Shown here: piece after piece, positions 23,480 to 46,501 of the stretch | How positions within the stretch are numbered: the stretch's first letter is position 1 | How the letters are laid out: every line of letters starts with the position of its first letter | NCBI RefSeq assembly: GCF_028389875.1 | Contig: NC_084665.1 | Coordinates: 3,348,001-3,412,000 of the forward strand | Length of the DNA: 64,000 bases | Reading direction: 5' to 3' | From: Rhea pennata | Lineage: Eukaryota; Chordata; Aves; Rheiformes; Rheidae | Translations under genes and position numbers: made by a program | The notes under the pieces: model-generated | What the model was told of the DNA's origin: nothing | What the model saw: only the letters and a program-made list of their open reading frames with translations | The model's database searches: none

Positions 23480-26400
23480 GCTCTGCAGTCTGCGCCTGAA
23501 GAAGCTCACAGTGCTAAAAGAGCTGGACAAAGAGCTGAGCTCCGTGCTCATCGCTGTGAAGATCCAGGTAGGCTCCTCTCCTTGATGCTGTCCCATGGCA
23601 ACAAGCCCGTCTTTGTGCCCTCTGTAAGGATGTGCTAGCCTGTGCACACCTAGCTGTGTGCCAGTCGCTGTGTTGGCTGGCACCCTTGGTGGTGATGGTG
23701 GGGGGGGGGCTCCAAGGCAGGTGGGAGTGATGCCCCAGGGCCAGCAGCAGCCACCTGGTGCTGCTGGCAGCAGGAATGTCTGGTTAGGCCTCTGCTATGG
23801 GACAGAGTGCTCCCACCTGCACTGGGTGCCTCAGCTAGCTTCTGCCTCTGGAGCTGCTGCTGGGAGCTCAGCAGCCCCTACCCATCCTGCTCTCGACCCC
23901 TTGGCCAGGCTCAGCACCTGATGGCTTCTGGCAGTGTCCTATGTCTACATGGCCTCCCTGGGGAGCCCACAAGTGAAGGGTGCGAAGCGGGGAGGGTGAC
24001 AAAGCTGGGCGAGGGATCAAGTGCCTCTGTGGGTGGCTTCTGCTGACATTGGCACCTTGTGTGATCTTACCATTGCCTGCGCTGTCCCCTCCCTTTCTCT
24101 GCGTGGCCTGGCCTGGCAAGGCACCTCCACTTTGTCCTGGGCAGAGGAAAGAGCTTTGTCACCGAGGGGAGAGGCTCTTTGACCCCGTCCTGCCCCTTCC
24201 TTCCCTGCCTCTGGCAGCAGGGAAGAGATGACCCCGGTGTACAGACACATCCTCTCCGTCTGCCAGAGTACAGCAAGGAAGCAAGCTGCCTCTCGAATGT
24301 GGTGTCCCCGCAGTGTCTCCCTTGCCCAGCAGGAACGCCGGTGCCCTTTCTTCGTTCTTGTCAGCTGGCGGAAAAGCTGCTGATCCCATTGAAACACCGG
24401 GGGTGGGGGGAAGCTCAGCAGCTTTGTGCGCCCGCGGAGCTCTTTGTGCCACACACGTTAGAAGCTAAATCCTGGATTAGCACTTGAAGCTGCTGTATTA
24501 ATGGAACTCTGGGAGCTGGCGTTTGCCTTCATGGCAGACCTGGTTCACTTGCCTAGGAGAGTCTGGAAGCAAAATGCAAAAAAATGTGGGGCTTGGAGGA
24601 AGAGGAGGAGCAGAACCCTGTGGTCCACGTGCTGCTGGTCAGGCCTTTCCATCACTATGTATGGTGTTATTCAGGAGAGCTGGAAGCACTGGGCTGTGCC
24701 TCCCAAGACATCTGCCCCTCTGACACAGGCATTGCCAAGGAAACAGCCCAAGCAGGAGAGGGCTGTTGACCCCTTGAAGCAAGGGAGCAATCGAGGTTGG
24801 GCTGACACCTGAGGGTGGAGGCCAGAAAGCAGCTGGGTGCTGGGTGGCTCCCATGCAGCTGGGAGGGCTGGGCTGTGTCACTGTTCCTGTTACCTCCTGC
24901 ACTAGCTGCCCGGGCTGTCTGTTCTCCTCTTCCTCCTCCTCCTCTGGGGCTTCTCTGCAGACCCTTGTTATACTGGGGCTGGCATATGCTGTGCATGTGT
25001 GTCCTCAGCTGCATCCTCCCTCGTACGCTGCAAATGTGAGACTGCGGAAGAGGCTGCTCAGCAGGACCTCAGCTCTTTCAGACAGATCCCCCTGCCCCAT
25101 TCCTGCTGTGGGCCCCACGCTGTATCCTGCAGGCACAGGAGGCTAACAGGCCTCAGCAGGGACTGTTTGAGACCATGTGGGCTCCTCCGTATGGGGCTGC
25201 TCTCCCTGCCAAGTAACCAAGGTTGCATTCGAATGAGGGCCTCGGCTCGAACGTGCTTACCTCCTCTCTGTGTGGCCACGTGCCTGCGGCCACCTGTAGG
25301 CATAGGCTACCCACAAAGCTGAAGAAAACTGGAGGAGAAGGCTGAAGCCACACCAGCCTGTGGCTCCACACTCATTGCGGGAGCACGGCAGGCTTGTGTG
25401 CCTCCCTGATCTGCTTCCACCTGCAGAGCTGGGGACTGCTGAGCCCTCCTGGAAGGCAGATGGGAGCTGTAGGCAGCATCAGCACAGGCTGCCTACAGAA
25501 CGGCCTCAGATGGATCCATCCCTCTTGTGCCTCTCCTAGGTAACGAGTGAGTCATACTAGCAAGAGGCTGTTTGAAGGCTGTCTGGTGAGTGTTGCCATC
25601 TCCATCTTTTGGATGGAAACAGAAGACGTGTGTAATTTGTGGAGAACCTGCAAGTTCCTAAGGAAACAGCGGGGACCTAGCAAAAAAGGGCAGATAGATT
25701 TTCTCTTATTTCAGTAGTGGTTTTGCTGGGTTGAAGTAAGGCCTATTGGGAAATTGCTGCTCTGAAGGGCAGATTGTATGGAAACAGAGCTCTGACCCTG
25801 CCTGATGGTGGAGCTTGCTTGAGGATGACAACCCTAGTGAAGGAGACAGTCCACTAGATGAATGTATGGGACCCGAAGGATGGTGTAAACCTGTCTAGAA
25901 TATCTACTGTCCTTCTTACAGCAATTGTGCCCTTCTGGTCGTAAAGGACAACTTCCAAATGTTGTATGTGCCATCTGCTCCTTCATCTAAGAAGACCTCT
26001 GACAAAAGGTTAAGGGAAGATTTTTATGTCTACTAAACATAGTTATTCATCAAGGAGAAAATTTCTTATATGCCTTGGTCACATTTCCCAGAGGTGATTT
26101 GAATACTTAGAGTCCTAAATCAGTGACTTCTAGTGAGATAAGGTCTAGACTGCTGTGGAAAGAGAACTTACTCTCATATCCCTTGAGTGTTTTTTAAACC
26201 TTTACCCCTTGTTATTTGTTTTAACAGCTTGGAGATGTCATAGAGCATTTTCTACTGTGTACGGTTCAGCGTGGCATTAAGGCACCCAGATGTGCCTGCT
26301 TCAGCTCTGTAAAGGTGCAGAAAACAGTCTTGGCTGCTTAACTGTGTTTACAGTGTGAAGGGAAATGTGGCCCTTGACTTGGCAAAGGGAATTCCTGTGA

Positions 26401-46501: not shown

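What the first reader, a model, noticed from the sequence alone, without database searches (positions are those of the whole stretch)
23480..46501. A third PACS paralogue, absent as such from mammals
The reading frame is unmistakably PACS but cannot be called PACS1 or PACS2. It combines a PACS1-type [13 protein letters not shown] stretch with PACS2-type DAVQGQ, RTTSM and VLDSD segments and the PACS2-type Akt site, and has its own C-terminus. It sits tail to tail with CUL7 and MRPL2, a block that in human (6p21.1) has no PACS gene. I know of only PACS1 and PACS2 in human; databases may hold this gene as PACS1-like or PACS2-like.
Basis: partly seen in the sequence, partly recalled or inferred. 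Interest (0 to 1): 0.87.

Follow-up and report, generated by a model that had tools for sequence, protein, structure and literature searches.

The report
Third PACS gene beside CUL7
This window, probably from a bird or reptile, carries an apparently intact third gene of the PACS protein-sorting family beside CUL7 and MRPL2, where the cattle and sheep gene lists that I read show none; it looks like a leftover of the early vertebrate genome doublings in a family usually said to have two members.

Summary
Exons at 23480-46501 (+) join into one open frame of 855 residues (844 without a 33-base candidate mini-exon). There are 24 exons with AG/GT borders, and an AATAAA follows. Pfam calls both PACS domains. 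Exon 1 was not found in the window.

Over 815 columns it agrees with PACS1 alone at 97, with PACS2 alone at 98, while those two agree against it at 91. The mix is interspersed. This speaks against an orthologue, a late copy or a chimera.

Printed gene lists fit a place in a paralogous block: cattle RRP36-CUL7-MRPL2-KLC4 without PACS; pig PACS1 listed next to KLC2; a fish synteny legend lists KLC4, "PACS2", RRP36 in a row.

Best reading: a third 2R ohnologue ("PACS3"), kept here and missing from that block in the mammals listed. Five papers that I saw in passages describe two vertebrate PACS genes. This genome's own PACS1 and PACS2, a rooted tree and other species could not be examined: the genome search did not complete.

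The parts
23480..23567 (+). exon 2 (numbering assumes one exon 1 outside), start of the N-terminal C2 / furin-binding region (LCSLRLKKL...)
   Evidence: C2_PACS_N
32739..32828 (+). exon 3, with ETELELTF aligned to the adaptor-binding motif of PACS1
   Evidence: motif of PACS-1 in PMC9456036
33082..33207 (+). exon 4, with CK2-binding RRKRY and the arginine equal to human PACS1 R203
33385..33547 (+). exon 5, end of the C2 domain; SIY where PACS1 has the GGA3 motif KIY
33690..33781 (+). exon 6, [15 protein letters not shown] (CK2-type acidic serine) and DAVQGQ
34909..34989 (+). exon 7, basic stretch TKKARRKM and RTTSM
35958..36017 (+). exon 8
36678..36829 (+). exon 9, [10 protein letters not shown] where PACS1 has its nuclear export motif
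41110..41203 (+). exon 10
41591..41662 (+). exon 11, variable middle region
41935..42056 (+). exon 12, variable middle region
42206..42338 (+). exon 13, with RSTSVKDR aligned to the Akt-type site of recalled PACS2
42442..42546 (+). exon 14, start of the C-terminal region (PF10254)
43331..43437 (+). exon 15
43786..43940 (+). exon 16
44029..44139 (+). exon 17
44235..44337 (+). exon 18
44653..44685 (+). exon 19, candidate 33-base mini-exon ([11 protein letters not shown]); skipping it gives YKQKSPDED, like recalled PACS2
   Evidence: tentative, 30% GC between intron parts of 71% GC
45099..45141 (+). exon 20
45261..45303 (+). exon 21
45429..45570 (+). exon 22
45769..45992 (+). exon 23
46173..46286 (+). 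exon 24
46386..46501 (+). exon 25, own C-terminus ...FGYSKSV and stop codon
47334..47339 (+). AATAAA, likely polyadenylation signal of the PACS gene
47640..59840 (-). CUL7-type gene, tail to tail with the PACS gene (ends approximate, by eye)
61560..63072 (-). MRPL2, mitochondrial ribosomal protein L2 (ends approximate, by eye)
   Evidence: Ribosomal_L2 N and C domains, with the sequence read

Best explanation
The gene is a third vertebrate PACS paralogue ('PACS3'), most likely the ohnologue made with PACS1 and PACS2 by the two genome doublings at the base of vertebrates. It was kept in this genome (a bird or other sauropsid, judged from CR1-like repeats, a name I recall), probably also in ray-finned fish, and lost from the RRP36-CUL7 gap in mammals. 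It should work as its sisters do, as a cytosolic sorting adaptor: the N-terminal C2 / furin-binding region holds acidic-cluster cargo and adaptors, the middle region is a phosphorylation switch, and the protein may join WDR37 as PACS1 and PACS2 do. Its motif set is mixed: a PACS1-like adaptor motif (ETELELTF), the shared RRKRY and CK2-type acidic serine, basic and export-like stretches, and a PACS2-like Akt-type site. Shown: gene structure, domains, equidistance from the recalled human sisters, local neighbours. Inferred: 2R origin, loss in mammals, sorting function, WDR37 binding, all motif activities.
For: Intact 24-exon frame; whole PF10254 and most of C2_PACS_N. Star-like relation: 97 / 98 / 91 sites of 815; 77 / 79 / 75 of 682 columns away from gaps; attachment to the PACS1-PACS2 path at 0.50 (95% 0.43-0.57); ML branches 0.25, 0.29, 0.30. 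PACS1- and PACS2-like sites are interspersed, runs z = -0.79. The recalled human sequences: 6 of 6 PACS1 motifs printed in PMC9456036 fall at their printed positions, lengths 963 and 889 as printed; PACS1 agrees with PDB 9z30_A at 150 of 153. Block: the pig list ends CNIH2, RAB1B, KLC2, PACS1, SF3B2 and holds TMEM151A and SLC29A2 (PMC6487013, passage); the cattle list runs PPP2R5D, MEA1, KLHDC3, RRP36, CUL7, MRPL2, KLC4 and further on holds SLC29A1 and TMEM151B, with no PACS (PMC7655849, passage). A synteny legend names KLC4, PACS2, RRP36 consecutively (PMC5446266, section 14). Motifs: against PMC9456036.
Against: Three sequences give no root and no duplication order, and dating the split assumes similar rates. 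This genome's PACS1 and PACS2 were not seen. The legend of PMC5446266 is a list covering salmon, gar, zebrafish and human; the figure is not held and the gene is labelled PACS2. KLC4 and RRP36 are not in the window. KLC, SLC29A and TMEM151 are called paralogues by name only. The C2 part alone is nearer PACS1 (80.7% against 75.7%), and single exons lean either way (exon 17: 9 to 2 for PACS1; exon 18: 11 to 3 and exon 22: 10 to 4 for PACS2). No expression evidence.
Confidence: 0.85

Rival explanations
1. It is this genome's PACS1 or PACS2 itself, evolving fast in a GC-rich region.
For: The gene is GC-rich (third codon positions 75.5% GC) and such genes can diverge; five papers seen in passages know only two vertebrate PACS genes. 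This genome's other PACS loci were not seen.
Against: An orthologue, even a fast one, should share far more sites with its own partner than with the other; observed 97 against 98. The locus is beside CUL7 and MRPL2, not beside KLC2 as PACS1 is in a pig list.
Confidence: 0.05
2. It is a later, lineage-specific copy of PACS1 or PACS2 that moved next to CUL7.
For: Only three sequences were compared; this genome's sisters were not seen.
Against: A late copy should still carry the derived sites of its parent; the attachment point is the middle of the PACS1-PACS2 path. 23 introns inside the joined frame exclude a retrocopy. A synteny legend lists KLC4, PACS2, RRP36 in a row.
Confidence: 0.06
3. It is a PACS1/PACS2 chimera or an assembly artefact.
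Against: The two kinds of site are interspersed (93 runs, 98.5 expected; longest run 8, reached in 45% of 2000 shuffles). At 201 of 815 columns (91 where PACS1 and PACS2 agree, 110 where all three differ) it carries a residue of neither. No N in the window.
Confidence: 0.02
4. It is a decaying relic without function.
For: No expression data; exon 1 not seen; no dN/dS.
Against: 2565 coding bases without a stop or frame break, splice borders in order, polyadenylation signal, several published motifs kept.
Confidence: 0.02

Closest known systems
[quoted passage not shown]
   Same: C2 and C-terminal domains, adaptor motif with one change (ETELELTF / ETELQLTF), RRKRY, R203 context, [13 protein letters not shown]; 63.3% identity over 815 columns (human sequence recalled)
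   Different: RSTS instead of RSTP at the Akt-type site, SIY instead of KIY, locus beside CUL7 and MRPL2 and not beside KLC2, own C-terminus; the N-terminal start was not seen
PACS2
   Same: DAVQGQ, RTTSM, RSTS, YKQKSPDE without the mini-exon, KKVMFL; 63.4% identity over 815 columns (human sequence recalled)
   Different: Has the DRSPDI stretch that recalled PACS2 lacks, adaptor motif ETELELTF against ETDLALTF, own C-terminus; PACS2's locus is known to me from memory only (14q32)
Single PACS gene of invertebrates (fly, worm)
   Same: Same family, from published descriptions (PMC11858789, PMC11457933; passages)
   Different: No invertebrate sequence was at hand; relation not measured

Membership tests
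PACS family | N-terminal C2 / furin-binding domain | tested here: met
   PF25332 138 bits against cut-off 27, residues 1-139, model from 22 because exon 1 is missing; PDB 9z30_A E 1.3e-70
PACS family | C-terminal Pacs-1 domain | tested here: met
   PF10254 638.8 bits against cut-off 25, model 1-413 of 413
PACS family | CK2-binding RRKRY and acidic-serine autoregulatory site | tested here: met
   RRKRY identical; SEEEDD aligned to SEEEEE, motifs from PMC9456036 (passages); sequence only
PACS family | binding of acidic-cluster cargo and of WDR37 | not testable with these tools
   needs protein experiments
PACS1 orthologue | shares clearly more derived sites with PACS1 than with PACS2 | tested here: not met
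   97 against 98 of 815 columns, human sequences recalled
PACS1 orthologue | locus beside KLC2 | tested here: not met
   right-hand neighbours are CUL7 type and MRPL2; PACS1 listed next to KLC2 in pig; the left-hand neighbour was not seen
PACS2 orthologue | shares clearly more derived sites with PACS2 than with PACS1 | tested here: not met
   98 against 97 of 815 columns, human sequences recalled
2R ohnologue of PACS1 and PACS2 | split about as old as the PACS1-PACS2 split | tested here: met
   star-like counts, attachment 0.50 (0.43-0.57), near-equal branches; assumes similar rates, no root, human sequences recalled
2R ohnologue of PACS1 and PACS2 | lies in a block paralogous to the PACS1 block | tested here: met
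   KLC2/KLC4, SLC29A2/SLC29A1, TMEM151A/TMEM151B in printed lists for pig and cattle, paralogous by name; the window is tied to that block by CUL7 and MRPL2 only
2R ohnologue of PACS1 and PACS2 | orthologues across jawed vertebrates | tested here: inconclusive
   legend with KLC4, PACS2, RRP36, figure not seen; no vertebrate genome could be searched

The most novel reading that the evidence does not exclude
Jawed vertebrates began with at least three PACS genes. The third was kept in birds and other sauropsids and in ray-finned fish, and lost on the way to mammals. It joins PACS1-type adaptor binding with PACS2-type Akt control, so that non-mammals have a third, partly redundant PACS, and the mouse lethality of losing PACS1 and PACS2 together reflects a loss of backup.
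Probability: 0.35. Interest if true: 0.65.

Novelty: new member of a known kind. Interest (0 to 1): 0.52.

Why it matters
The five papers cited in the full report describe two vertebrate PACS genes, and some reason about their mutual compensation on that basis. A third, old paralogue would change the family's history from one duplication to the usual 2R pattern. It gives a third natural combination of sorting and phosphorylation motifs, and it matters to anyone modelling PACS1, PACS2 or WDR37 syndromes in chick or fish, where a further gene, perhaps filed as 'PACS2' or 'PACS2-like', could mask effects.

Tried and rejected
The window's own genome was asked eleven times with the same request (PACS family PF10254, 'own') and never answered, so its PACS1 and PACS2 loci were not seen. 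Relatives were sought in viral contigs with the C-terminal 431 residues (no pattern match) and in prokaryote genome contigs with the 844 residues (12 pattern matches, 0 confirmed); neither collection is meant to hold vertebrates, so this says nothing about distribution.

Exon 1 was sought by patterns in three + frames (none) and by tblastn with two recalled exon-1 peptides over 1-23500 (best E 0.022, on the minus strand and not convincing). The first 40,000 bases show no CpG island in 2-kb bins (CpG observed/expected at most 0.37). I conclude that exon 1 lies outside, but a very divergent exon 1 is not excluded.

The neighbour scored higher against Cullin-9 than against Cullin-7 in all three frames (492/341, 145/132, 562/456 bits). 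I still call it CUL7 type: its last matches are CUL7 1537-1610 of 1700 and CUL9 1830-1912 of 2517, followed by only some 300 bases of gene; Pfam found no RING-between-RING domain at E 0.001, although it also found no cullin domain there, so that absence is weak; and it is next to MRPL2, as CUL7 is in a cattle list.

Paper searches for a third PACS by name: 5 of 6 listed; 2 of 2; 5 of 5; by context: 10 of 11; 20 of 54; 20 of 21; 4 of 4. No listed title or opening of an abstract named a third PACS; the one PACS paper found with 'three PACS' means cell lines. (0 papers), 30 and 47 looked for the block. Searches (a fish gene table naming pacs2; hidden bird genes, no PACS or CUL7; interaction lists) added nothing. 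No tRNA in the window. No structure was predicted: a single-sequence model would not separate the readings.

Full report
What is there. On the + strand, 24 exons between 23480 and 46501 join into one open frame of 855 residues ending in a stop at 46501; every border is AG/GT (24 of 24 acceptors, 23 of 23 donors), and the other two frames hold 36 and 34 stops. I chose the borders by eye with PACS in mind, so they are partly selected, but an open frame of this length across 23 introns is not chance. An AATAAA follows at 47334. Pfam finds the whole Pacs-1 C-terminal model (638.8 bits) and the PACS C2 domain from model position 22 on (138 bits); a PACS1 N-terminal chain is the one convincing PDB relative (9z30_A; the other 6 of 7 rows, E about 0.8, are CAND1 and look like chance). 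The C2 match beginning at model position 22, and the missing segment that recalled PACS1 and PACS2 have before this point, place exon 1 to the left of the window; it was not found in 1-23500, and the first 40 kb has no CpG island in 2-kb bins.

With it the protein has 855 residues, without it 844, and the joint then reads YKQKSPDED, like recalled PACS2 (YKQKSPDEE). It is 30% GC between intron parts of 71% GC. That suggests, but does not prove, an optional exon.

Is it PACS1, PACS2 or neither? No vertebrate genome could be searched, so I used human PACS1 and PACS2 from memory and tested the recall. All 6 of 6 PACS1 motifs that I took from PMC9456036 (passages) fall at their printed positions in the recalled sequence (168, 196, 249, 278, 311, 366). 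Its length is 963 as printed there, and recalled PACS2 has 889 residues as printed in PMC10968252 (passages), with E at 209 as its variant name requires. The recalled PACS1 agrees with the PDB chain at 150 of 153 residues; the three differences (244, 249, 251) include two of the three residues of the printed KIY motif, where the paper and my recall agree against the chain.

Over 815 gap-free columns, 419 are identical in all three, 110 differ in all three, 97 join the window protein to PACS1 alone, 98 to PACS2 alone, and 91 join PACS1 to PACS2 against it; identities are 63.3, 63.4 and 62.6%. With columns near gaps dropped (682 left) the counts are 77, 79 and 75. The bootstrap puts the attachment at 0.50 of the PACS1-PACS2 path (95% 0.43-0.57), and ML branches are 0.25, 0.29 and 0.30. 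If rates are similar, this is the pattern of a split about as old as that between PACS1 and PACS2. A divergent orthologue or a late copy should lean to one side. The sites are interspersed along the protein (93 runs, 98.5 expected, z = -0.79; longest run 8, reached in 45% of 2000 shuffles), which speaks against a chimera. Against the simple picture, the C2 part leans to PACS1 (80.7% against 75.7%), and some exons lean one way (exon 17 to PACS1, exons 18 and 22 to PACS2).

Where it sits. To the right, on the minus strand and tail to tail, is a CUL7/CUL9-family gene. It scores higher against Cullin-9, but it seems to end at CUL7's length, without room for the extra C-terminal part of CUL9, and it is followed by MRPL2. 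No KLC4 coding part was found in the window (Pfam on the last 900 bases of the + strand: nothing). In cattle the printed list runs PPP2R5D, MEA1, KLHDC3, RRP36, CUL7, MRPL2, KLC4, PTK7, SRF, CUL9 (PMC7655849, passage); a second cattle list and a sheep list name genes of the same block without PACS (PMC8396740, PMC8957090, passages): 3 of 3 lists read, though the second cattle list is not in map order and also holds unnamed Ensembl genes. I take the lists to be in map order; the papers do not say so in what I saw. The window's order would thus put the PACS gene in the mammalian RRP36-CUL7 gap, if RRP36 lies to its left, which I could not see.

Why there. In a pig list PACS1 is next to KLC2, in a 1-Mb stretch with SLC29A2 and TMEM151A (PMC6487013, passage). 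The cattle stretch of about 2 Mb with CUL7 has KLC4, SLC29A1 and TMEM151B. By name, three gene families besides PACS therefore mark the two blocks as paralogous. From memory, KLC1 and PPP2R5C lie on human 14q32 with PACS2, and PPP2R5B on 11q13 with PACS1, which with PPP2R5D in the CUL7 block fits the same set. A paper on fish pentraxins lists, among the abbreviations of its synteny figure (salmon, gar, zebrafish, human), KLC4, PACS2 and RRP36 in a row (PMC5446266, section 14 read in full). The figure is not held, so neither the species nor the exact place is certain, but it suggests that ray-finned fish keep a PACS gene in this block under the name PACS2.

How it most likely works. By alignment it keeps the adaptor-binding motif in PACS1 form (ETELELTF), RRKRY, the arginine altered in PACS1 syndrome, a CK2-type acidic serine (SEEEDD), a basic stretch (TKKARRKM), an export-like stretch ([10 protein letters not shown]), and RSTS at the Akt-type site where recalled PACS1 has RSTP; the GGA3 motif KIY is SIY (motif list; the Akt role and the number 437 of the PACS2 serine are recalled). 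I infer a cytosolic sorting adaptor with PACS1-like adaptor binding and PACS2-like Akt control that may also join WDR37. PMC12154601 (passages) models WDR37 on a 'beta-domain' of PACS1, with PACS1 and PACS2 competing for one site; I did not establish which part of this protein that is. None of these activities is shown.

What is known. Five papers seen in passages state two vertebrate PACS genes or a duplication into PACS1 and PACS2 (PMC11858789; PMC11457933; PMC9456036; PMC10968252; PMC10582149); PMC12154601 speaks of two paralogues. Searches by name and by context (listings partly capped) showed no third PACS in the titles and abstract openings listed, in an open-access library that lacks most subscription journals. 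Sequence databases, which I could not see, may well hold the gene as PACS1-like or PACS2-like. PMC10582149 reports no Pacs1/Pacs2 double-knockout pup in Table 2 (0 observed, 7.56 expected, N given as 121), which makes the number of paralogues in other vertebrates a practical question.

Verdict. A real third PACS paralogue, intact as far as the window shows; a 2R ohnologue is the best reading. It is a new member of a known family. The host is judged a bird or reptile only from CR1-like repeats (name recalled; a reverse transcriptase match) and base composition. Still missing are a sight of this genome's PACS1 and PACS2 loci and a rooted tree with database sequences.

Noticed in passing
44653-44685 (+): A 33-base, AT-rich candidate mini-exon ([11 protein letters not shown]) in GC-rich introns; skipping it gives a PACS2-like joint, so it may be an optional exon.
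   Followed up: partly
47640-59840 (-): The CUL7-type neighbour lies in a stretch of 63-76% GC by 2-kb bins and scores higher against Cullin-9 than Cullin-7 in all three frames, though it seems to end at CUL7 length.
   Followed up: partly
18202-20200 (+): A LINE-like fragment with a reverse transcriptase match (RVT_1, 60 bits, 1 of 3 frames), probably CR1 (name recalled). Related-looking stretches near 2.7-3.9 kb (no Pfam match in 3 frames), 29.7-30.6 kb and 60.98-61.46 kb were seen by eye.
   Followed up: partly
63100-64000: CpG-rich stretch beyond MRPL2 (CpG observed/expected 0.93 in 62001-64000); may be a promoter shared with KLC4, but no Pfam match was found on the + strand.
   Followed up: partly
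PDB 9z30_A (outside the window): The PACS1 chain differs from the published KIY motif at 249 and 251, and from my recalled PACS1 at 244; at all three it has the residues of recalled PACS2.
   Followed up: no
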